Shown here piece after piece: positions 5,101 through 48,636 of a stretch of 64,000 nt of DNA. Source of the DNA: Cunninghamella blakesleeana (Eukaryota; Mucoromycota; Mucoromycetes; Mucorales; Cunninghamellaceae); NCBI GenBank assembly GCA_017871115.1, contig JAFCIZ010000006.1, positions 1,364,001-1,428,000 on the forward strand, written 5' to 3'. Each line of letters begins with the position of its first letter. Within the stretch, counting starts at the first letter, position 1. The notes beneath the pieces were generated by a model. That model was not told the DNA's origin. It was given only the letters and a program-made list of their open reading frames with translations, and did no database searches. A program made the position numbers and the translations under genes.

Positions 5101-5369
5101 ATTTTTTTATATATTTTACTAAAGGATAACGATATTAATACTTACAGCAGCGTTTCCGCCTTTTTTTAATACTTCAATACCAGCTTGAGTAGCTAAAGGT
5201 TGACTATGTACATAGATATTAAAAAAAGAAGTAAAAAGCTAATTCGACTAGATTGACATTATAAAAGTATATAAAAGATCTCTTTTGCTTACGTGCTTGA
5301 TACCATAGCATGAACACCATATACAGCAGAGCGTCTTGAAATAAACCGTAATTCTTTTTCAATAGTCAT
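2191..5369 (-). CDS. gamma-glutamyltransferase-family (Ntn hydrolase) protein
   Basis: Fourteen exons in plus coordinates: 5293..5369, 5146..5203, 5006..5024, 4848..4868, 4632..4722, 4344..4538, 4233..4263, 3987..4105, 3484..3883, 3241..3378, 3099..3122, 2798..2978, 2659..2663 and 2191..2574. All phases agree, giving 580 residues. The N-terminal [16 protein letters not shown], the STGIGGDAF block, the [10 protein letters not shown] segment with the expected nucleophile Thr367, and the C-terminal MQPQGQVQV and [10 protein letters not shown] blocks are hallmarks of the family. These enzymes are made as one chain and self-cleave before the Thr. Canonical members transfer or hydrolyse gamma-glutamyl groups, e.g. 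from glutathione. The exact substrate is not certain, because this sequence resembles the YwrD/GGT-like branch more than classical GGT. No signal peptide or membrane anchor is seen. Exon 13 is only 5 nt long. Confidence 0.9.
2659..2663 (-). other. 5-nt microexon of the GGT-family gene
   Basis: Minus-strand exon TGATG is flanked by an AATAG acceptor and a GTATGT donor. The previous exon ends with one base (G) of a codon and the next begins GGT, so the microexon completes GTG and adds ATG. The result is the family-typical reading [13 protein letters not shown]. Without it the frame is lost and the two conserved residues are missing. Confidence 0.85.
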
Positions 5370-35250: not shown

Positions 35251-37433
35251 TTAAATGTCTCTGTTGATGTTGATCTTGACAGATTTGACCTAAATTAAAA
35301 AGTATTAAAAGGAAAATAATTAAGATTAATATTGATAATTAATTTTGCAAAATATATGTATATGTATATAAAAATATTTATTTATTTACCTGGAGATAGT
35401 TTTGTAATGCATATTCACCATTTTCACGGCCAATACCACTTTGTTTGTAACCACCGAAAGGTGTGTTGTAGTCCAATTCATTATAACAGTTAACCCCTAC
35501 ACAATAAAAAGAAAAAGGAAAAAAAAAAAAAACAGATTAGAGCCCGTTTTTTTATTTTTTTTACATGCATTATATATATATATATATATTAAAAGAATAC
35601 TTACAGACGGTACCAGCTTCAATCTTATCAGCAACTTCAACAGCACGAGTAACATTTTCGGTAAAAATAGCAGCGGCTAAACCATAAGTAGTATCATGAG
35701 CTAATTCAACAACGTGATCAATATCCTTGAATTTAGAAATAACAACGACGGGACCAAAGATTTCTTCTTGAACAATCTTCATTTTAGGAGTAACATCAAG
35801 GAAAACAGTGGGTTCAATGAAGTAACCTTTATCACCGAAACGTTTACCACCAGCAGCAACGGTAGCACCTTCAGATTTACCGTGTTCAATATAACTCATG
35901 ATACGATCGTATTGAGTTTGAGAGATTTGAGGACCTTGGTAACTATATCATTTTTTTAGAAAAAAAAAAAGAAAAAGGTAAGTAAAAAAAAGAAAATAAA
36001 AATTGTTTAATAATAAAATTAAGTATATGAATAAAAAACTTACGTAGTTTCATCAAGAGGATCACCAACGCGAGTCTTAGCAGTGAGTTCCTTGAATTTT
36101 TCTACAAACTTATCATAAATACCTTCTTGTACATAAACACGAGAACCAGCACAACAACATTGACCATGATTGAAGAAGATACCATGATGAGCCCATTTGA
36201 CAGCTTTGTCAAGATCAGCATCATCAAAGATAATATTAGGAGATTTACCACCAAGTTCTAAAGTAACCTTCTTGAGATTGGTTTCAGCAGCAGCCTTCAT
36301 GATCAAACGACCAACAGCGGTAGATCCAGTGAAAGCAACTTTACCTACTTTAGGATGGCGGGATAAAGCATCACCGGCAATATGACCATAACCAGTAATG
36401 ATGTTAACAACACCCTAAATAAGTTTTGAAATAATAAAAATGAGTATAAATTATATTGTTTAATACTCGTATAGACGAAAATGATGATGGTTACTTACAG
36501 GAGGGAAACCAGCTTCTTTAATAAGAGAAGCAACCTTAAGTGCTGATAAAGGAGTCAATTCAGAAGTCTTGACAACAATGACGTTACCAGTACATAAAGA
36601 AGGACCAAGTTTCCATGCAAGCATCATAAGAGGGAAATTCCATCTATAATTTTAATAAAAGCAGTAAAGAAAATGAATGGAAAGAACAAGAAAAAGAGCT
36701 GCTGTATTTTTCTTTTATATTTAATTTTTTATTTAATATATGTGGTCACTTACGGGATGATAGCACCACATACACCAATAGGTTCGTATCTAGTATAACT
36801 AAGAGCACCAGGAGTAGGGATAGTTTTACCATGGATCTTATCACAGAAACCGGCATAGTAACGAAGAGTAGTAGCTAAACCTTTTACATCAACAAAACGA
36901 GACATGGAGATACCTATATTTATTTATTTATATATTTATATTATGAGAAAAATAAATAAATACAATTATTATTATTACTATTTTCAAAGCCTAATATTAT
37001 TTTATTTTTATATAAATTATTACCTTTTCCGTTATCCATGGTTTCAATTTGAGCTAATTCTTCAGCGTCACGTTCAATTAATTCACATAACTTTAATAAT
37101 AAACGTTGTCTTTCTAAAGGAGTGGTCTTCTTCCATACTTCATTATAAGCTTTTTCAGCGGCATCGACAGCGATATCAACTTGTTGTTTTTCAGCTATTT
37201 AAAAAAGATAATGATACAGAAATAAAATATATATATTAATAATTATAATGCTATTTATCTTATTATGTACAACTAAAACTTACCGGCTTGAACAGCACAA
37301 ATAACTTCACCAGTAGCAGGGTTGACGGTATCAATGGTATTGGCACCAGCAACAAATTCATTATTAATGAAAAGACCAGTTTGTACTATTTAGTAAAGAC
37401 AAAAAAAAAAAAAGATGAGTATACATCGCGTAA

Positions 37434-37475
<42 letters not shown>

Positions 37476-37553
37476 ATAAAAATAAAATAGAATAAACTTA
37501 CATTTGAGATTATAACCCTTAGCAGTAGTAACGTCAGCAACGAGATTAGTCAT
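35251..37553 (-). CDS. NAD(P)-dependent aldehyde dehydrogenase
   Basis: Nine exons (37502..37553, 37284..37385, 37024..37194, 36754..36913, 36499..36643, 36044..36414, 35605..35942, 35390..35496, 35251..35289) give 494 residues, the normal size of the ALDH1/2-type family. Visible motifs: [23 protein letters not shown] for the cofactor site, the general base Glu263 in [10 protein letters not shown], the nucleophile Cys297 in GQCCCAGSR, and [13 protein letters not shown]. It oxidises aldehydes to acids. The lack of a clear presequence suggests a cytosolic enzyme. Codon use is more biased than in most neighbours, suggesting good expression. The start region is divergent to VPS34 and the intervening promoter DNA is interrupted by a retrotransposon. 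Confidence 0.95.
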
Positions 37554-38687
37554 TGTTTTATTATTATTTATTGTTAGTTAAAAAAGTAAAATTAAAGAAA
37601 AGAAAAAAAAAAAAGAGCGTTGGGTTTTTTGGGAAATTTTTTATTTTTAAAATAAAATTTTCGTGTATCTATAATATGGCATAAAGGCGTTTCAATTGCT
37701 CTTAAAATTTTAAACTAAAATCAGCCAATGAAAATCTAATAAAATTATCCGACTTACATTTTTATTTTTTTATTCACACGGGGGCAATAGCCGTAAAAGC
37801 TTATACACACACGCTCACAAACACTTTTCTTAAAAATGAGAAGTAAACTAATTTTTTATATATTAAATAAATAAATAAATATTTATATATTTATTTACTA
37901 AATATAAAAAAAGTTTCAGATATATCTGATCATTCATTTAATCGTTTTCTTTTTTTTCTTTTTATTGAATTTATATGAGTTTAAAAAAATAGATTATTCA
38001 GTTACAAAAAAGTACAAATATATTTTATATAATATAATATAATAAAGAGAATCTATTACCAGAGTAATTTAAAGAGACACGGATATAAAAAGCCGATATT
38101 TTATATTATTATTAATTCTCTTTCTCTCGCTCCTTTTCTCATCAGGTGCTTTTATATATGTGTATATGCATAAGTGTGTGTGTGTGCATTGACGACTAAG
38201 AGTTAACTTAAAAATGTTTACCAATTATAAAATATTTGTTGAACATACCCACACCCACACACTCATTTACGCATAAAAATAAAAATAAAAATAAAAATAA
38301 AAATAAAAATAAAAATAAAAATAAATAATGAATAATAATAAAGAGTTTATTTATGATGATCTTAATCTTCATTGTTTCAATCATTGATATCGAACCACAA
38401 ATAGAATGATGCCCTTTATCATTATATTTTATATATACGTACATTCATTTACCATTCACATTTACTATTTCAAATATATATTTATTTAATCTTTATTTTT
38501 TTTTTTCTTTCTATCAAAAAAAATCAAGATACGTATAAAGTCTCTCTTTATTTTTTCCACTTTTGTCTATTCCATCACTTTGTATCGAAAATCAAGATAA
38601 AAAAAAAATTTGTTTTTCTATTCAGTTAAATTTCATAGGTGGATGATTGGCATAATGATATTTTTAAAACTCCGTTTTTTTTTTTAA
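37554..38687. other. intergenic between ALDH and retrotransposon, 1.1 kb
   Basis: Before the transposon arrived, this and 44277-44326 formed the region between the divergent ALDH and VPS34 genes. It therefore probably holds the original VPS34 promoter as well as that of ALDH. It contains a CAC/TG-rich patch (37800-37830, 38160-38190, 38245-38275) and a TAAAAA repeat. Confidence 0.5.
38274..38324. repeat. (AAAAAT)n hexanucleotide microsatellite
   Basis: About eight near-perfect copies of aaaaat lie in the ALDH/retrotransposon intergenic DNA. Confidence 0.9.
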
Positions 38688-38691
38688 AAGA
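38688..38691. repeat. target site duplication, left copy (AAGA)
   Basis: AAGA directly precedes the TG that opens the left LTR and is repeated directly after the CA that closes the right LTR (44273-44276). A 4-bp duplication fits the Ty3/Gypsy integrase range of 4-6 bp. Confidence 0.8.
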
Positions 38692-38989
38692 TGTATTGAA
38701 ATCCTTAAAAAGATCCAAATTACGAGGATTTATAAGGATTAACTGGATAGTTTGACTTATTAACAAACCAAAATAAAGATTAATATTATAGATTAAATAA
38801 TAAAAAGTTTCGTTTATCGAAAAATTAATAAATATGTTCAAAATGTTAGAAAAATTGTATATTCGAAAGAGCCCGTTTTTTTATTAGAGTTAAAATTTAT
38901 GAAGATTTTTATATATGAGCTGAATTTGGAAAATGGTTGAACATAAAAAATAACTTTTTGGTTTTTTTGTATTTTTCAAACCCAACACA
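38692..38989 (-). repeat. LTR (3' LTR of the minus-strand element)
   Basis: A 298-bp direct repeat of 43975-44272. Reading base by base I find no difference between the two copies. The repeat boundaries are exact: the flanking bases on both sides differ between copies. Confidence 0.95.
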
Positions 38990-39044
38990 TAATCCCAGCA
39001 CCATCATAAAAATAAAAAAAAATAAAAGTATTATATTTTTTTTT

Positions 39045-42000
39045 TCATTTCCTTTCATAATATTTTTTTAATTGCCTTAGGTTGACTAAACGTTTTGCTT
39101 CCTTCATACGAACACAATCCCAAAGTTTAGCAGTACCGTTATCGTATATAGTAAGTATACGGAAAAGATGGTCTTTATAGGCTGGTTCTAATTTATGTTT
39201 ATGGTTTTGATATCTTTTCATAACCATATCACCAATTTTAAAACCGTCTAACTCGTATACTAACTTCCACTCTTTCTGTTGTAAGATAGATTGGTCCTTG
39301 CCAGTTAGTTGCTTATCAGTACTAGCGGTTTGTCTAATACCCTCGACATAGTGGGCACCTAGCTTGCGCAACTGGTCTTCGTCATAGGGACGAGGTGGAA
39401 CACCAAAAAGAGCCTCGTAAGGTGAAACACCTAGCTTATCATTAACTTTGGTCCTATGTGCGTATAATACAGCATACAAAGCACTATCCCAATCATCAGG
39501 TCTATTTAACACTACTTTCTTCATGGAAGTCACCAAGACACCATTCAAATGTTCAACCTTACCATTTGTTCTTGGGTTATACGGAGTGGAGAACTTGTGG
39601 TTAACATTGACAAGGCTGATAAAGTTAGCAATACCTTCACTAATGAATTGTTGACCATTGTCAGAAATAAGTTCAGCAGGGGGTCCAAAGATGGAAAACA
39701 CGTCAAAATAGAGGAAGTTCATAACCACGTTGGCAGTAGCAACAGCACAAGGTTTGGCGATAGCCCAATTGGTGAAATATTCAACTGCCACCAAGATATA
39801 CTTGTTTCCAGCCCGTGTTTGATGTAAGGGTCCAACAAAATCTATGCCAAATCTTTCAAATACATAATAAGTATTAATTTTATTATAATTTGTTATTTTG
39901 ATTTTCTTTTTATCAAACAGTTGACATTCGTGACAAGAGCTGATATGCTGGTCTACATCTTTAAAACAACTTGGCCACCAATAATAATGACATAAGCGAC
40001 TCCATGTAGCTTTTCTTCCAAAGTGTCCCATACCTTCATGAACTTCTTCAAGTACTTTATGTCTTTCTTGAATAAAAGGGACTTTAGAAAGTGCGTCACC
40101 AACCTTTCTGTACAGGTGGTCTTCTTTAATAATATAGTATTTGGATAAATTTCTTACTTTGGCGGAAGCACCATTAATATTACCATCCAAATATAAGTAA
40201 ACTTCATAGAGATAATCTTCATAGATTTGTTCTTCCTTTACCACATTCATACACCATAAATTATCTTCATCATTAGATTCAATTTCTTCAATATTGACTG
40301 GATATCGTGACATAACATCAGCGATAACATTATTTTTACCTTGGATATGATGTACTTCGAAATCAAATTCTTGGAGCAACACCAACCATCGTTGTAATCT
40401 ACTACTGGGATCTGATCGGTGTAGTAAATACCTTACGGCAGAATTATCGGTGTACAAATGGATATGTTTATCTAAAATATACTTTCTAAGTTTAGAAAAC
40501 GCATACACTACGGCCAATAATTCAAGTTCAACAGTAGGATAGCGGATTTCAGCACCTTGTAATTTACGGGATAGGAAGCAGACTGGACGTTCGCCAAAAC
40601 CATCACTTGTAATAGTTAATGTAGCGCCCAATCCTACGTTAGAAGCATCAGTATAAATCTTATAGACTCCATTTTCATTGGGAAAGGCTAGCTCAGCAGA
40701 ATTGTAAAGTGCAGTTTTTAAATTATCAAATGATTTTTGTTCAACACCAGACCAACTAAATTTAATTTTACTGGAAGTCAGTTTGCTTAATGGAGCAGCA
40801 ATATCTGCAAAACCTTGTACATGACGTCGGCAAAATCCACAAAGATTTAAAAAGGCACGAACATCGGTAGTATTCTTGGGAATAGGGAATGCATTTATCT
40901 TATTAATTTTTGATCTATCAACTTTAACACCAGAGTCAGACACAATAAATCCTAACACATTAATTTGACTTTGATACCATTGGCACTTTGACGGTTTTAT
41001 CTTCATATTAGTCTCAATAATTCGTTTCAATACTTGATCAATATGATTCAAATGATCACCTTCATCTTCAGAATGGATTGTTATATCATCAATATAAGTG
41101 GTTACAAAATCGCCCAAGAAGGGTTGCATAGCAAAATAGATAGCTCTTGAAAAAGTACTAGGACCATTTTTAATACCAAATGGCATTACACGATAAGAAA
41201 AATTACCCCAAGGCGTAGCGACTGTCAACTTTGGAATAGATTCTTGGTTTACTCTAATCTGGTTAAAACCTTTCAACAGATCAATAGCAGAGAAGAATTT
41301 AGCATCAGCAAAACTGTCCAATAAATCTTGAATCCGAGGTAATGGCCATGTGTCTTTCCGAGTAATATCATTTAATTTTTGGAATTGGATACACAGTCTT
41401 TTATCACCGTCTTTCTTCTTAACATATAGGGCAGGAAAACCCCAACCACTATTACCGTTATTATACATGGAAGGCTCTAAAATACCATTATTCACCATTT
41501 CTGTGATTTCAGCTTTCAGCAACGTTTGTTCAGAGTAGGGCATATGATAATTTGGTCTTAATGCAATGGGCGAATGATCACCAGTATCAATATTCAACTC
41601 AACCAAATTTGTAGTCTTAATATCAGCATAATTAATTCCAAAAGCTTCACGATTTTCTATTAATATCTTCTTTAAATCGTCACTTAATTCTTTGATTAAT
41701 CCAGCTCGATCAACACTAGAAGAAATAGCAGCAGATAGGTCATCAATATTGGTATTACTACATAAATCATCACAACCAGAAGCATCATTGTCAACTATAC
41801 CACAGTCATTTGAATAGTCTGACATTATCAAATAGCTAAGAGCAGCAGAATCATCATCCGTACTATCATTATCACTTGAAGGACTATATGAGTCTGAATA
41901 AGAAGTTGACTCTTCAATTAAAGTCGGTTTTAAACGTGAATGGTATTTAACAGTAAATTCTCGTTCAACGTGACCAGTCCTAATAATCCATTGATATTTA

Positions 42001-43655
42001 TCATAATCAGTTATCACACCTAACTTATGCAGAAGCGGTCTTCCTAATAAAAGATCAAAGTCGATTCCATCTAAAACTTCAGCCTCAATAGTAGAATAAA
42101 CACCATGAAAGTCCACATTAATAGTAACTTGTCCTAAAGGTATGACAGCTCTACCATCAGCAACTTTGATTGTTCGTCCACCACTTCTCATTCTGTTTTT
42201 TAGATCCATAAACTTAATCAACTTCTTACTTATGATATTAATACCAGAACCACCATCCAAAATAGCACCAACTTTGCAATACTTGTTTAACACCACCTCA
42301 GTACTAGGTGCACCAAAACTTGAATCACCATCACTTTCACTATCATCAATTTGTGCTAACAGCGACGTATTGTTTTTATTTTTATTTTTGTGATTTTTAG
42401 TCAACTTACGTTTCGCTAGAGTCCTAAAGGTTGGAGAAAGAGTAGCCAATTCGTTTAATGATATGTTAATAGAAGCATGATCCATTAATTTATCAACAAC
42501 CTTGTCAGACCAGGTAGCAACTGCTTTCTTTTTATGTTTATTATGACCTTCGTCTTCTACTACTTCGTCACCACCGTCATTATTAACAGGTAAAGAGTCA
42601 GCATGTCTTGTATTGGGACGTTTAATAGATTTTTGGTTATTGGTATCTGATTTACTGTTATCATCAGAACCTCTAGTACGTCGTGTACGTTTAGTGGCAT
42701 AACACTCAGTAACTAATAAAGTCGACGAAGCATTATTACTATTAGACAGCACTGGTGAATTAGATGCATTCGATTTTTTTGACCTATACAACCTGCACCG
42801 GAAATATGGATGGTTTTCATTACACAATTTACAGGGCTTATCACAAAGTTCCGCGAAGTGACCCACAGTTTGACAATTGTAACACCTTTTTACAAACGCT
42901 TGTGTCACCGGCTGGTTTGTTTGACCTTGCACCAATAACGTCAACCTTTCGATACCTTTAGTCAATGATTCGATGGGATCAGCACCAGTCTCTTTAAATT
43001 GCTTTTTACTTTTAGATCTCTCGACGGACTTATCATCATCGGAATCATAATCACTATTGGATGACTCATCTGAATCACTGTCATCAAGAATTTCCTTCAC
43101 TAATCTTCTTACACCCTTTAAACTACTTGGTTTGGCACTTTTAATTGTATGTCTTAGTGTTGCGGGGCGTAGTCCTTTAATAAATCGTTTTAATAGTTTG
43201 TCTTCAAGGTCATTATCATTATACAATCCTTCATAGCCATCATCTTTGTCTTCATCTTTAGACTCATTAGTATTATTAAGGCTCTGTGGTTTTTTTGACG
43301 TAATCTTGACTAACATACGGTATTTACTTCTTAAAGCCATGACACGATCATAATAATCATCAATAGATTCATCTTTTTTCATTTTTATGTCAAGTAGTTT
43401 AATTTGTAAATCATCAACATCTAGTTTGTCACCATAACGTTCGACAAATTCTTCCATGAATTCATTCCAATTAGAAAAACCACTAGCATAGAACCAATTT
43501 TTTTGTTTAGACTTTAAATAGCTGGGTACACATTGTAATTTTTCTTTAGGCGTTAAGCCCATGACGTCTGTAGCGTCATTGAAGCTTTGTAGCCAAAAGA
43601 TAGCATTATCCTTTCTTTCGAATAGCGGGATCTTTATATTACGACTTGAAGACAT
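39045..43655 (-). CDS. Gag-Pol polyprotein of Ty3/Gypsy retrotransposon
   Basis: A single frame of 1536 residues without stop or frameshift. Domains in order: Gag capsid-like region (about 1-200, VPSYLKSKQKNWFYA); a CCHC zinc knuckle (about 258-272, CYNCQTVGHFAELC); aspartic protease near 466 with DGGSG in place of the common DTG/DSG; reverse transcriptase about 740-900 with the catalytic YIDD near 853; RNase H about 990-1110 starting at YTDAS; an HHCC integrase zinc finger about 1205-1245; and the DDE core with Asp in GIDFVG (about 1269), Asp in SDNGQQF (about 1333) and Glu in VEHLNG (about 1367). The C-terminus has a GPY/F-like remnant and no chromodomain. Gag and Pol are fused in one frame, so no programmed frameshift is needed. 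All catalytic residues that I can place are present. Confidence 0.96.
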   Translation of the reverse strand: MSSSRNIKIPLFERKDNAIFWLQSFNDATDVMGLTPKEKLQCVPSYLKSKQKNWFYASGFSNWNEFMEEFVERYGDKLDVDDLQIKLLDIKMKKDESIDDYYDRVMALRSKYRMLVKITSKKPQSLNNTNESKDEDKDDGYEGLYNDNDLEDKLLKRFIKGLRPATLRHTIKSAKPSSLKGVRRLVKEILDDSDSDESSNSDYDSDDDKSVERSKSKKQFKETGADPIESLTKGIERLTLLVQGQTNQPVTQAFVKRCYNCQTVGHFAELCDKPCKLCNENHPYFRCRLYRSKKSNASNSPVLSNSNNASSTLLVTECYATKRTRRTRGSDDNSKSDTNNQKSIKRPNTRHADSLPVNNDGGDEVVEDEGHNKHKKKAVATWSDKVVDKLMDHASINISLNELATLSPTFRTLAKRKLTKNHKNKNKNNTSLLAQIDDSESDGDSSFGAPSTEVVLNKYCKVGAILDGGSGINIISKKLIKFMDLKNRMRSGGRTIKVADGRAVIPLGQVTINVDFHGVYSTIEAEVLDGIDFDLLLGRPLLHKLGVITDYDKYQWIIRTGHVEREFTVKYHSRLKPTLIEESTSYSDSYSPSSDNDSTDDDSAALSYLIMSDYSNDCGIVDNDASGCDDLCSNTNIDDLSAAISSSVDRAGLIKELSDDLKKILIENREAFGINYADIKTTNLVELNIDTGDHSPIALRPNYHMPYSEQTLLKAEITEMVNNGILEPSMYNNGNSGWGFPALYVKKKDGDKRLCIQFQKLNDITRKDTWPLPRIQDLLDSFADAKFFSAIDLLKGFNQIRVNQESIPKLTVATPWGNFSYRVMPFGIKNGPSTFSRAIYFAMQPFLGDFVTTYIDDITIHSEDEGDHLNHIDQVLKRIIETNMKIKPSKCQWYQSQINVLGFIVSDSGVKVDRSKINKINAFPIPKNTTDVRAFLNLCGFCRRHVQGFADIAAPLSKLTSSKIKFSWSGVEQKSFDNLKTALYNSAELAFPNENGVYKIYTDASNVGLGATLTITSDGFGERPVCFLSRKLQGAEIRYPTVELELLAVVYAFSKLRKYILDKHIHLYTDNSAVRYLLHRSDPSSRLQRWLVLLQEFDFEVHHIQGKNNVIADVMSRYPVNIEEIESNDEDNLWCMNVVKEEQIYEDYLYEVYLYLDGNINGASAKVRNLSKYYIIKEDHLYRKVGDALSKVPFIQERHKVLEEVHEGMGHFGRKATWSRLCHYYWWPSCFKDVDQHISSCHECQLFDKKKIKITNYNKINTYYVFERFGIDFVGPLHQTRAGNKYILVAVEYFTNWAIAKPCAVATANVVMNFLYFDVFSIFGPPAELISDNGQQFISEGIANFISLVNVNHKFSTPYNPRTNGKVEHLNGVLVTSMKKVVLNRPDDWDSALYAVLYAHRTKVNDKLGVSPYEALFGVPPRPYDEDQLRKLGAHYVEGIRQTASTDKQLTGKDQSILQQKEWKLVYELDGFKIGDMVMKRYQNHKHKLEPAYKDHLFRILTIYDNGTAKLWDCVRMKEAKRLVNLRQLKKYYERK

Positions 43656-43699
43656 TATCGGTTAGCCTTAGGATTAATTAAGGTAAATAAGTTAAATTG

Positions 43700-43786
43700 G
43701 GAAAATAAAATAAAATAAAATAAAAATAAAATAGAAAAATATGATAAAATAAAATAAAATAAAATAAAACTAGTAAAATAAATAGG
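43700..43786. repeat. (AAAAT)n-rich leader of the retrotransposon
   Basis: Pentanucleotide repeats of aaaat occupy part of the untranslated stretch between the 5' LTR and the Gag-Pol start (43656-43974). Such a block can differ in length between copies of the element. Confidence 0.75.
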
Positions 43787-43948
43787 ATAAAAATTTTATA
43801 TGAAAGAGATATAAAATTATAAACACTTTGAAATGGGGGGTAATAAAGATCAAAATGAAATAGAGTAAATTATAGGGGTAGTTTAGGTTAAAACAGAAGG
43901 AGATCCTGTAATAATCGTTGATTTATTAGACGAGCGTACAAGAATCTA

Positions 43949-43968
43949 CCTTCTGGCAGAAGGCACCA
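43949..43968 (-). other. candidate primer-binding site with self-complementary core
   Basis: On the minus strand, six bases inside the 5' LTR, the sequence TGGTG is followed by CCTTCTGCCAGAAGG. TGG would pair with a tRNA 3' CCA end. The 15-bp core is a perfect inverted repeat around one central base. I could not match it to a particular fungal tRNA. Self-priming is an alternative. Confidence 0.5.
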
Positions 43969-43974
43969 AATTAT

Positions 43975-44272
43975 TGTATTGAAATCCTTAAAAAGATCCA
44001 AATTACGAGGATTTATAAGGATTAACTGGATAGTTTGACTTATTAACAAACCAAAATAAAGATTAATATTATAGATTAAATAATAAAAAGTTTCGTTTAT
44101 CGAAAAATTAATAAATATGTTCAAAATGTTAGAAAAATTGTATATTCGAAAGAGCCCGTTTTTTTATTAGAGTTAAAATTTATGAAGATTTTTATATATG
44201 AGCTGAATTTGGAAAATGGTTGAACATAAAAAATAACTTTTTGGTTTTTTTGTATTTTTCAAACCCAACACA
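43975..44272 (-). repeat. LTR (5' LTR of the minus-strand element)
   Basis: A 298-bp copy that I read as identical to 38692-38989. In this orientation it should drive transcription away from VPS34 and towards Gag-Pol. Confidence 0.95.
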
Positions 44273-44276
44273 AAGA
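44273..44276. repeat. target site duplication, right copy (AAGA)
   Basis: This matches the four bases before the left LTR (38688-38691). It lies 50 bp before the VPS34 start codon. Confidence 0.8.
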
Positions 44277-44326
44277 AATGAATCACCAGCTTTTTTTCTT
44301 CCTTGTAGTGATATATATATTTAACT

Positions 44327-44771
44327 ATGGATTTTTCATATTGTTTAACTAAAGATGTGAAGTTACCAGTTTCTATTAAAATGTATTACATTTATCATTA
44401 TCATTACTATTGCTGTATATAAACTATTATTTCAATCGATTTAATTAACCATGTAATAATATTAATACTATTATTATCTTTTATATGTATATATATAGTT
44501 CAACTTTAGAAGGATCTTTACAACGTCATACTTTTACAACAGAAAAAGCAATGTATGTTTATATAAAGAAAAAAATATAATGATTAAAGTTTTTCTATTC
44601 AGTTTTTTAACTCGATTTATTTATATATATTTGTTTTTACAGTGATCATCCTGATTATTATGTATCCGTTCAACTTTTTGGTGATAATAAACCTTTGACT
44701 TTACCTATATCTACAACTTATAAATCTTTTTCAAATCACTGGAGGTAAACATATGTTTATTATAACATTTT

Positions 44772-44812
<41 letters not shown>

Positions 44813-46377
44813 GAAAAATAGTTTATGTCCAGAACTAAACTATATATATTATTCTTTATTATTGTTATTATTTCATAGATGGAATGAATGGTTAAGTTTG
44901 CCTATAAATTATTGTGATATACCTTCTTCAGCACAGTTTGCTATTACAGTATGGGATACTTCAGAACCAAGGAAATTAAAGCCTTTTGGAGGAACAACTA
45001 TGAAAGTTTTTGGTAAATATAGGTAAGGAATTATTGTCGATTCATTTTAGTAATTAAATGAGTCAAGTAAAGAGAAAGATTATAATATTATGATATGAAT
45101 ATAAAATGAATATACTCTCTCTCTATATATGTATATATCCGTTGTTTGATAAAAATATAGTACACTTCGTAAAGGAAAGCATAAATTATATCTTTGGCCA
45201 GGCAAAGAGGCTGATGGACAAACTAATACTTCTACTCCAAGTAAAGTAAAGGTTGCTGATGATATGGATAAACTTGAAAAGGTAAAAACAACACATCATT
45301 ATAACCATAATCATGATAGTGTGTAAAAAAAAGAAATACATAGATTTATTTTAAATTGATTTTTATTGCTTGTTCGTTTTTCTTTGTCTTATAGTTAGTA
45401 AAAAGGTACGATTGTGGTGATATTCAACCTGTACGTTGGTTAGATAACCTGGCTTTTAGACAAATAGAACAAATTCATAAGGTATTGTTTTTATTATTAT
45501 TATACGTGTATATATTGAAAATAATAATAATAATGTACTGATCTGGACTATATTAATACTTGATATATATATATTAAAAAAATAAATAGAAAGCATCCCA
45601 ATCATCAACTGATTTTGCATTATATGTTGAGCTACCTAAATTTGATTTTCCTGTAGTGTTTGGAGATAAGGTAATTTATAGAAAAAAATAAAATACACTT
45701 CTCTCAATAAATATAGACTATTAATATTTGTTGGTATCTTTTATTGTATTTTTTTTTATTATTATTATATTTATTATAAACCAGGAATATACACCCATTA
45801 TTAATTCAGCATCATTTATTCCTGATCATAATGTACCTCCACCACAAACAAAAACCGCAATTGCTAATGCTATGAATCAACCCATGTATGGAGACCATCA
45901 TAATGAAGCAAATCGTTTGTCACAGCATCCGACTGAAACGTTGGTTACCCATTATTCTGTCGTATTAGATCCTGATATTCATCGTGATAATCCTGTAGAA
46001 GCAAAACATCGTCGTCTTGTACGTAGCCATCGAAACGGACCTTTAGATCGCGATTTAAAACCAAACCCTAAAACTAGAGATGAATTAAATGTAATAAAAG
46101 GGAAAAAAAATATGTCTAGTAAAAAATAGAGAAAAAAAAAATTATGATTTATACTCACCTTCTATTTTATCTTATTTATTTTAATACATCTATATTTATA
46201 AAGAGTATTATTTTATACCCACCTACACAAGCACTTACAACAGAAGAAAAGGATTTAGTATGGAAATTCAGATTTTACCTTACAAGGGATAAACGGGTAA
46301 GTGTATATATATATATATGTTTATACTTTGATATAGGAAATAAAATTATACTTAATATTTTTAACTAATCATTATAT

Positions 46378-46423
<46 letters not shown>

Positions 46424-48636
46424 CTTTAGGCATTGACTAAATTTTTGAAATGTGTTGTTTGGACAGACCCTACTGAAGTAAGACAAGCAGTGGATTTATT
46501 GCCATTATGGGCTGATATTGATGTAGACGATGCACTTGAATTACTTGGAAAAGAATTTGAAAATCATTCTGTAAGATCTTATGCCGTCAATCAATTAAGA
46601 AAGGCTGATGATGATGTAAGTTATTGAAAAATATACAAGTAAAATTAATTGAAAGAGATGAAAAAGTGTATTTCATTAAACAATATTTTATTACTAATGC
46701 ACACACTCTTTATTTATATTTATTAGGATTTATTGCTTTATCTATTACAATTGGTACAAGCCCTTAAATTTGAGCATTTTAATGATAAGGACACAAATTC
46801 TTCTTTGGTTCAATTTTTGATTGATCGTGCAACCCAAAATCCTGTACTTGGTAATTATTTTCATTGGTATCTTATGGTAGAATGTGAAGATAAAGTAGTT
46901 GGAAAAATGTATGCAAAAGTTGCCTATCATTTCTTTAAAGCTATTTTAGAGGTAAAAACATTTACTCTTTTTTTTTAATATAAATATTCATCATTTTTAC
47001 AAACTTTTTATTTATTTATATTAATTTAATTTTATAATCAAAACAATCTAGATGCCTAATGGGCACCAACGACGTGATACATTAAGACAACAAGGCGAAT
47101 TAGTTCAATATCTCTCTCGATTATCAAAGGAAATTCGTGACGTTAAAGATACTAGGGCTAAAAAGGTAAAGTTAAAAAATAAAAGAATATAGAGCAAACA
47201 AATAAACAAACGAAAGAATGTTTATACATACCAAATAACAATAAACTATCTACTTTTTATTTATTTATTTATTTATTTATATAGGTGGATAAATTACGAT
47301 CGACTATAACAGATCCTAAAGGTACCTTACACTCCATACCTTCTTTACCTTTACCTCTGGATCCAACTAAGAAAGTATGTAGCGTGTTGCCTGAAAAATC
47401 TGGTATTTTTAACAGTAATTTACAACCTCTTCGTTTGGCATTTGTTTGTGAGGACGATTCTGAATATCCAGTAAGTTTATATTAGAAAATAAATGAAAAT
47501 ATAAATAAATAATAAATATAGTTTTTTGACTAACTTTTTTATATGCTATATTTTTTTATTTTTTATTTTTTTCTAAAAAAAGGTTATTTTTAAAGCTGGG
47601 GATGATTTAAGACAAGATCAATTGGTTATTCAAATTATTACACTAATGGATAAATTATTAAGGAAAGAAAACTTGGATCTTAAACTAACACCTTATAAAG
47701 TACTTGCTACAGGGACTGACCATGGGTTAGTTCAATTCATTTCTTCTAAACCTTTGGCTGCCGTCTTAGATGAACATCAAAACAATGTTTTAAGTTATTT
47801 CAGACAACATCATCCTGATTCTAGTCCCAATGGTATTTATGGCATTGATAGTCAAGTGATGGAAACTTATATCAGAAGTTGTGCTGGATATTGTGTTATT
47901 ACATATTTGCTAGGCGTAGGAGATCGCCATCTTGATAATTTATTATTATCACCAAGCGGTAACTAGAAAAAGAAAAAGAAATGAAAAGACACAAAAGCAA
48001 TTCAATATATAGAAGAGTATTAATTTAATTTTTATATTGTCTTTATATCATCTTTTTTTCTTCTTCTCTTTTTAATATACGCAGGCCATTTGTTCCATGT
48101 TGATTTTGGATTTATACTTGGAAGAGATCCTAAACCTTTCCCACCACCAATGAAACTTTGTAAAGAAATGATTGAAGCAATGGGTGGAGCTGATTCTCCT
48201 CATTATAACAAATTTAGACAATTTTGTTATACAGCTTTTACAGCCTTAAGAAGAAATGCAAATTTGATTCTTAACTTATTTGCTTTAATGGTGGATGCTA
48301 ATATACCTGATATTAAAATTGAACCCGATAAAGCTGTTTTTAAGGCAGGTTTTTTTTCTTCCTTTTTTTTTTTTTTTTTTAAATATATATATATATATAT
48401 ATGATTAACAAGTATTAATATAATATGCATGAAAATCATTAATAATATGGTTGATTTTTTAACTTATTTTTATTTTTATTTTGTTTATTAAATAGGTACA
48501 AGAAAAATTTAGATTGGATTTATCAGAAGAAGCCGCAATCGCATACTTTCAAGGACTTATATCAGAAAGTGTCAATGCATTGTTCCCACAGATCATGGAA
48601 ACTGTACATAAATGGGCTCAGTATTGGCGTAAATAG
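44327..48636 (+). CDS. VPS34: class III phosphatidylinositol 3-kinase catalytic subunit (Vps34)
   Basis: Sixteen exons (44327..44382, 44499..44552, 44643..44744, 44879..45022, 45161..45281, 45395..45481, 45590..45670, 45785..46090, 46204..46296, 46430..46615, 46727..46951, 47052..47165, 47285..47470, 47583..47958, 48085..48344, 48496..48636) give 843 residues, all in phase. Order: C2 domain ([26 protein letters not shown]), helical PIK domain (about 310-500), and lipid kinase (586 on) with [12 protein letters not shown], the catalytic loop GDRHLDN at 698-704, DFG at 717-719, and the C-terminal helix ending WAQYWRK. It makes PI3P from PI on endosomes and phagophores for vacuolar sorting and autophagy. 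The last intron uses a GC donor. A Gypsy retrotransposon ends 54 bp before the start codon, so expression may be altered. Confidence 0.96.
44774..44811. repeat. poly(T) tract of 38 bases in a VPS34 intron
   Basis: A perfect T run in the third intron of VPS34. The length may be affected by sequencing or assembly. Very long polypyrimidine tracts near an acceptor (about 65 bp further) could influence splicing. Confidence 0.9.
46379..46420. repeat. (AT)n microsatellite in a VPS34 intron
   Basis: About 20 AT units immediately upstream of the pyrimidine tract and acceptor of VPS34 exon 10. Confidence 0.9.
48345..48495 (+). other. non-canonical GC-AG intron in VPS34
   Basis: The exon ends TTT AAG, the intron begins GCAGGT, and the next exon starts GTA CAA GAA after AATAG. 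Phase 0 is required: exon 15 is 2+258 nt and exon 16 is 141 nt. The protein joins as [12 protein letters not shown], matching the family pattern. The nearest GT, four bases later, would bring a stop (ATT TAG) in the next exon. Confidence 0.85.

What the first reader, a model, noticed from the sequence alone, without database searches (positions are those of the whole stretch)
38688..44326. Apparently very recent intact Gypsy insertion 50 bp upstream of the VPS34 start codon
The two 298-bp LTRs read as identical, the Gag-Pol frame is unbroken, and a 4-bp AAGA duplication flanks the element, so the insertion is young and the element may still be active. It separates VPS34 from the DNA that was probably its promoter (37554-38687) by 5.6 kb. 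The original region was a divergent ALDH/VPS34 intergenic segment. VPS34 must now use the 50 bp left, an antisense-LTR promoter, or the insertion must be polymorphic in the culture.
Basis: partly seen in the sequence, partly recalled or inferred. Interest (0 to 1): 0.75.

Follow-up and report, generated by a model that had tools for sequence, protein, structure and literature searches.

The report
Promoter-motif-homing Gypsy retrotransposon beside VPS34
A very young jumping element sits just in front of the VPS34 gene of a Cunninghamella-like mould, and its sister copies suggest that it did not land at random: the family tends to insert at a nearly fixed distance and in one orientation beside a short promoter-like DNA motif.

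Summary
A 5,581-bp Ty3/Gypsy element lies at 38692-44272: identical 298-bp LTRs, AAGA duplication, open 1,536-aa Gag-Pol, tRNA-Thr primer site. It ends 54 bp before the ATG of the only VPS34 gene found. The host is a Mucorales fungus close to Cunninghamella echinulata. Three other full copies are at least 99.89% identical and six unique solo LTRs are identical, so the burst is recent.

In 12 of 18 unique loci (LTRs 82-100% identical) a CCG/CCA core ends 15-18 nt (mode 17) from the LTR; in 14 of 18 a T-run ends 5-8 nt away (background 3.2%). A matrix trained on 8 sites found the motif at 15 of 29 other LTR edges (1% expected) and at 0 of 21 mirrored flanks. The motif is native: AAACYCCGNNTTTTTT occurs 77 times in the genome, its reversed control once. 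No tRNA or Rfam gene was found nearby.

Best reading: a host factor on this motif tethers the integrase. Position resembles Tf1/Sap1; orientation resembles Tj1, the only wild-type LTR element its authors knew with fixed orientation. The effect on VPS34 is unknown.

The parts
35251..37553 (-). Aldehyde dehydrogenase gene, divergent neighbour (start and stop read by eye)
   Evidence: Pfam Aldedh on 36040-36414; sequence
38662..38684 (+). Target motif TTTTAAAACTCCGTTTTTTTTTT, core CCG ends at 38674, 17 nt before the LTR
   Evidence: matrix score 24.6, leave-one-out 23.3; the only exact AAACYCCGNNTTTTTT match inside the window
38688..38691 (.). Left target-site duplication AAGA
38692..38989 (-). 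LTR (3' LTR in element sense)
   Evidence: 100% identical to the other LTR
38990..39044 (-). Region before the 3' LTR; no clear polypurine tract
   Evidence: by eye
39045..43655 (-). Gag-Pol frame, 1,536 aa
43167..43517 (-). gag domain (Retrotrans_gag)
   Evidence: Pfam E 1.1e-6
40941..41423 (-). reverse transcriptase (RVT_1)
   Evidence: Pfam E 4.9e-29
40365..40655 (-). RNase H (RT_RNaseH)
   Evidence: Pfam E 2e-28
39915..40070 (-). integrase zinc-binding domain (Integrase_H2C2)
   Evidence: Pfam E 2.2e-16
39573..39845 (-). integrase catalytic core (rve)
   Evidence: Pfam E 1.7e-10; PFV and Ty3 integrases
43951..43968 (-). Primer-binding site, 18 nt, complementary to the 3' end of tRNA-Thr(AGT) plus CCA; 6 nt from the LTR (by eye)
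43975..44272 (-). LTR (5' LTR in element sense)
44273..44276 (.). Right target-site duplication AAGA
44276..44298 (+). Second, weaker motif match left beside VPS34 (core ends 44288, 38 bp between it and the ATG)
   Evidence: matrix score 12.6
44277..44326 (+). 50 bp of VPS34 5' flank left; contains an out-of-frame ATG at 44278 and a 3'-splice-site-like TTCTTCCTTGTAG
   Evidence: by eye
44327..48600 (+). VPS34 (PI3-kinase) gene; first exon 44327-44382 inferred; end approximate
   Evidence: Pfam PI3K_C2, PI3Ka and PI3_PI4_kinase on its exons; no other kinase-exon match above 36% identity

Best explanation
The feature is a recently inserted Ty3/Gypsy LTR retrotransposon of a family whose integration is directed to a host promoter-like motif. 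Shown: most young insertions of the family lie at a nearly fixed distance from the motif (CCG/CCA core ends 15-18 nt, mode 17, from the LTR, so about 13 nt from the duplicated 4 bp; T-run ends 5-8 nt from the LTR), with one LTR orientation relative to it, no mirrored case having been found; and the motif exists independently of the element. Inferred: a sequence-specific host DNA-binding protein sits on the motif in nucleosome-poor promoter DNA and holds the integrase complex in one orientation, so that the cDNA ends are joined 4 bp apart just beyond the T-run, with element transcription running towards the motif. At VPS34 this split a promoter with two motif-like copies: the strong one is now 5.6 kb upstream, the weaker one remains next to the ATG.
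For: Leave-one-out matrix: 12 of 18 unique loci (LTR 82-100% identical) score >10 on the motif side (all at offsets 15-22), 0 of 18 on the mirrored side; the same in a fixed offset range of 12-24, where 0.25% of background positions score >10. Train/test split: trained on 8 identical-LTR loci, 15 of 26 other LTR edges exceed the background 99% level (binomial p 7e-24, treating edges as independent), mirrored 0 of 21; with three edges first left out it is 15 of 29. T5+ run ending 5-8 nt before the LTR in 14 of 18, background 3.2%. CCR followed by T5 in 12 of 18 against 5.8% of random positions chosen to have a T-run. 4-bp TSD exact in 14 of 18. The motif is native: AAACYCCGNNTTTTTT 77 against 1 in the reversed control; TTTWAAMYCCGNNTTTTT 43 against 2. 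Of 40 of those 43 sites, coding sequence within about 430 bp downstream was called on the same strand at 11, the opposite strand at 1, none at 28. Likely genes start 54, 58, 68 and 72 bp from the LTR end at VPS34, a TRM5-like, a short-chain dehydrogenase and a CoaE gene (starts by eye).
Against: 6 of 18 loci fail the leave-one-out threshold, including two with identical LTRs: L031 has a T-run but no CCG core at the usual place; L022 has the core at 17 but no T-run. L026 passes with its core at 22-23 nt. 14 of 29 test edges do not pass, mostly older ones. Not all targets are clear promoters: L026 lies between convergent genes, and at several loci the nearest downstream coding sequence is antisense. 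No binding factor is identified. A motif copy in the LTR, which would parallel Tf1, is weak (8.8) and not conserved in older LTRs.
Confidence: 0.73

Rival explanations
1. The integrase itself prefers the DNA sequence or bend of a CCG plus T-tract, with no host tether.
For: The T-run end (n=15) is a tighter ruler than the core (n=14): sd 1.6 against 2.6, as direct contact might give.
Against: The core lies about 13 nt outside the duplicated 4 bp and on one side only, whereas an integrase complex with like ends should show a symmetric preference (inference); the motif is strongly over-represented in the genome without the element, which suggests a host-bound site.
Confidence: 0.14
2. General preference for nucleosome-free, T-rich promoter DNA plus loss of harmful insertions; the motif is only a passenger of promoters.
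For: Targets are T-rich and in four loci lie within 54-72 bp of a likely start codon.
Against: Among random positions chosen to have a T-run only 5.8% have CCR plus T5, against 12 of 18 here; selection would hardly set a 15-18-nt ruler or one orientation.
Confidence: 0.07
3. Ty3/Tj1-like targeting through the RNA polymerase III machinery at unrecognised Pol III genes.
For: Tj1 has fixed orientation at Pol III genes (PMC4600332, passages read); T-runs resemble Pol III terminators (recalled).
Against: ARAGORN found no tRNA in the window or in any of 20 flank loci; Rfam gave no hit at gathering level in those 20 loci or the window. Tools could miss an undescribed Pol III gene.
Confidence: 0.06

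Closest known systems
Tf1 of Schizosaccharomyces pombe (Sap1-directed)
   Same: LTR element that integrates at Pol II promoters at fixed positions from a DNA-binding protein's motif (-9 and +19 of the Sap1 motif; PMC5741268, passages read); Sap1 shapes nucleosome-poor regions (PMC5371812, passages).
   Different: Different motif as far as recalled; one-sided, one main offset; primed by tRNA-Thr (Tf1 self-priming is recalled); no chromodomain found (that Tf1 has one is recalled); no conserved motif in the LTR, whereas Tf1/2 LTRs hold a conserved Sap1 site.
Tj1 of Schizosaccharomyces japonicus
   Same: Fixed orientation; its authors knew of no other wild-type LTR element with this (PMC4600332, passages read).
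   Different: Tj1 targets Pol III genes; no Pol III gene was found here.
Ty3 of budding yeast
   Same: Same class of element; the integrase piece matches the Ty3 chain 7q5b.
   Different: Ty3 is targeted by TFIIIB and, through TFIIIC, inserts in both orientations (PMC5911963, passages read).
Gypsy elements of Rhizopus, Lichtheimia, Circinella and Choanephora
   Same: Closest named fungal RT relatives, 42-53% identity over the region (one Rhizopus delemar protein 57% over 42% of it).
   Different: Among the 120 of 126 hits listed none exceeds 60% identity; their targeting is unknown.

Membership tests
Ty3/Gypsy LTR retrotransposon | RT - RNase H - integrase order in pol, after gag | tested here: met
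Ty3/Gypsy LTR retrotransposon | paired TG..CA LTRs, short TSD, tRNA primer site | tested here: met
Ty3/Gypsy LTR retrotransposon | aspartic protease | tested here: inconclusive
   no Pfam protease hit in the three pieces, but my cut at residue 500 falls in the expected place; relatives bear PF13650/PF13975 (that these are gag-aspartyl proteases is recalled)
Ty3/Gypsy LTR retrotransposon | polypurine tract before the 3' LTR | tested here: inconclusive
   no clear tract by eye
Chromovirus (Tf1-like) | C-terminal chromodomain of integrase | tested here: not met
   no Pfam hit at E up to 10; the model ends in one small beta domain (pTM 0.40, so weak)
Tf1-type targeting | insertion at fixed offset from a host motif in promoters | tested here: met
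   offset; the promoter part only in part
Tf1-type targeting | dependence on Sap1 or a similar factor | not testable with these tools
   needs binding or genetic data
Tj1-type targeting | fixed orientation | tested here: met
   relative to the motif: mirrored 0 of 18, 0 of 21
Ty3/Tj1-type targeting | insertion next to Pol III genes | tested here: not met

The most novel reading that the evidence does not exclude
This is an LTR retrotransposon that integrates with a single orientation and a near-fixed ruler relative to a Pol II promoter element, bound by an undescribed general regulatory factor of Mucorales. It would be a second wild-type LTR element with fixed orientation beside Tj1, and one not tied to Pol III, and its insertions would serve as a footprint of that factor.
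Probability: 0.5. Interest if true: 0.75.

Novelty: new variant of a known kind. Interest (0 to 1): 0.6.

Why it matters
Fixed orientation is rarely reported for LTR elements and would show that the integration complex is held asymmetrically. The case also reveals a composite promoter-like motif in a fungal order whose promoters I found little on, and it makes the single VPS34 gene a natural test of what happens when such an element splits a promoter.

Tried and rejected
tRNA, 5S or other Pol III targeting: rejected, no tRNA or Rfam hit at the insertions (the tRNA-Thr genes, found at 4 of 7 scanned of 15 pattern places, are the primer source). LTR carries its own copy of the motif, as Tf1 LTRs carry a Sap1 site: present at 8.8 in the young LTR, but that 14-mer ranks 179th of 285 for conservation among 22 LTRs, so not claimed. 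Strict core-promoter element at the start site: not claimed, since gene orientation is mixed around insertions. A chromodomain as the targeting part: none found. Empty site in another isolate or species: not sought, no eukaryote genomes other than G000 were offered.

Dropped before the counts of 18: L027 (copy of L023); L033 (internal fragment, no LTR match); L034 (107-bp LTR piece); L042-L057 (LTRs under 82% identical or partial). Left out of the 26 and added: left edges of L034 (core at 17, no T-run, 6.5), L054 (4.9) and the second LTR of L037 (0.1, lies in LTR sequence); none passes 7.4. One search scored 40 of 42 candidates.

The matrix was built after seeing the sites and included six older loci chosen because they showed the core; others (leave-one-out; training on 8 identical-LTR sites) are the controls for that. 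The 8 training loci were the identical-LTR loci with a CCR at the usual offset, so L026 and L031 were put in the test set. The 12 loci with a core at 15-18 nt and the 12 passing leave-one-out differ by one: the first holds L022, the second L026. The reversed-pattern control keeps base content but not dinucleotide order. Confidence was lowered from 0.74 to 0.73 and one rival raised to 0.07 because of the three added edges.

Full report
What is there. The window comes from a 31.9-Mb, 12-contig genome. An aconitase frame of the same genome is 98% identical to Cunninghamella echinulata and 96% to C. blakesleeana, so the host is a Cunninghamella-like Mucorales fungus. The element is 38692-44272 (5,581 bp) on the minus strand: two identical 298-bp LTRs, AAGA on both sides, one open 1,536-aa frame with gag, RT, RNase H, integrase zinc-binding and integrase core domains, and an 18-nt primer-binding site matching the 3' end of tRNA-Thr(AGT) plus CCA (match read by eye). 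No clear polypurine tract was seen. VPS34 starts at 44327 (read by eye); its exons match PI3K C2, PIK and kinase families, and its kinase exon has no other match above 36% identity in the genome.

Age. The 5' internal piece gives 4 matches and the 3' internal piece 5, one a fragment of 552 bp. The three other full copies differ from the window copy by 1 mismatch plus 1 gap, 1 mismatch, and 4 mismatches plus a 2-nt gap; in all four the longest frame is 1,536 aa. Fifteen LTRs are identical over 298 bp; two lie in a duplicated block near contig ends (L023/L027), leaving 14 and an upper bound of 7e-4 changes per site. Six unique loci are solo LTRs with intact 4-bp duplications, so LTR-LTR recombination has probably been quick. 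Gene conversion could also keep copies alike.

Targeting. Lining up the flanks showed a common oriented pattern: TTTWAA-ish, then YCCG, one to three bases, a T-run, 5-8 bases including the duplication, then the LTR. Among 18 unique loci with LTRs 82-100% identical, 12 have a CCG/CCA core ending 15-18 nt from the LTR (7 of them at 17), two have one at 23-24 and four have none; 14 have a T-run ending 5-8 nt away against 3.2% of background positions; 14 have exact 4-bp duplications. Leave-one-out scoring gives 12 of 18 above 10 at offsets 15-22 and mirrored 0 of 18; with both sides and the background read in one range of 12-24 nt it is again 12 and 0 of 18, background 0.25%. Training on 8 identical-LTR loci and testing 26 other edges gives 15 above the 99% background level (p 7e-24, edges taken as independent), 12 above 99.8%, mirrored 0 of 21 (five edge-only cases have no mirrored side). 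Three edges that I had left out do not pass, so the full count is 15 of 29. A T-run alone does not explain it: 12 of 18 have CCR plus T5, against 5.8% of random positions chosen for a T-run. The background is the window and the insertion-locus flanks, not random genome.

The motif belongs to the host. AAACYCCGNNTTTTTT occurs 77 times, the reversed control once; TTTWAAMYCCGNNTTTTT 43 against 2; AAACYCCG alone only 977 against 405. I fetched 40 of the 43 sites: within about 430 bp downstream, coding sequence was called on the same strand at 11, opposite at 1, none at 28. The motif therefore seems to sit upstream of genes and to point at them, but most sites gave no call with my simple codon score.

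Genes at the insertions. From the LTR end a likely gene start lies at 54 bp (VPS34), 58 (TRM5-like), 68 (short-chain dehydrogenase) and 72 bp (dephospho-CoA kinase), that is 50-68 bp beyond the duplication (starts chosen by eye). At other loci the nearest downstream coding sequence is antisense or unclear, and L026 lies between convergent genes. So promoters are frequent but not exclusive targets.

Mechanism. The simplest account is a host protein on the motif that tethers the integrase asymmetrically. A polar replication-fork barrier bound by such a protein, as proposed for Sap1 (PMC5371812, passages), could also give one-sidedness. The integrase piece resembles foamy-virus and Ty3 integrases, with a small C-terminal beta domain and no chromodomain found (pTM 0.40, only local parts are trustworthy). 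The factor is unknown; direct sequence preference of the integrase is not excluded.

Comparison with the literature. Tf1 inserts at -9 and +19 of the Sap1 motif (PMC5741268, passages). Tj1 inserts in one orientation at Pol III genes, and its authors knew of no other wild-type LTR element with fixed orientation (PMC4600332, passages). Ty3 inserts in both orientations through TFIIIC (PMC5911963, passages). Searches for fixed-orientation LTR elements (1 paper, the Tj1 one), orientation bias with LTR integrase and promoter motif (1), LTR elements with Mucorales and promoter (4), Cunninghamella with Gypsy (3), Mucoromycota or target-site duplication with solo LTR (10 of 130 listed) and promoter motif with Mucorales (12 of 337 listed) showed no title or abstract opening that describes this; of the papers I saw only the listings, and most subscription journals are not held.

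VPS34. Joined flanks show a pre-insertion promoter with two motif-like copies 29 nt apart, scores 24.6 and 12.6. The insertion fell between them, 13 nt beyond the strong core. The weaker one remains 38 bp before the ATG; about 0.005 such matches are expected in 50 average positions. An out-of-frame ATG at 44278 would burden transcripts that start in the LTR unless the splice-site-like stretch ending at about 44308 is used (by eye). Whether VPS34 expression is changed cannot be told from sequence.

Noticed in passing
L044 (G000:C7:2974400-2975400): Two old LTRs lie side by side in opposite orientation; the plus one has the motif on its own outer side (14.2), the minus one only a weaker match (5.0), as the orientation rule would predict.
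   Followed up: partly
L023 and L027 (near the end of C8 and the start of C3): The same identical solo LTR with the same near flanks on two contigs: probably a subtelomeric duplication younger than the insertion.
   Followed up: partly
G000: 150 RVT_1 places scored of 247 candidates, many in sets with equal scores and long open frames: probably several other young retroelement families.
   Followed up: no
L033 (G000:C1:3763375-3763926): A 552-bp near-identical internal 3' fragment of the family with no LTR match in the fetched 9.9 kb.
   Followed up: no
L037, about 5182-5297: A second partial LTR begins 1 to 4 bp after the first: a repeated insertion at almost the same place.
   Followed up: no
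window 44278 and 44308: Out-of-frame upstream ATG and a 3'-splice-site-like TTCTTCCTTGTAG in the 50 bp before VPS34; a 5'-UTR intron is possible.
   Followed up: no
window 35546 (+): A motif-like AGAGCCCGTTTTTTT inside an ALDH intron resembles the LTR-internal stretch.
   Followed up: no
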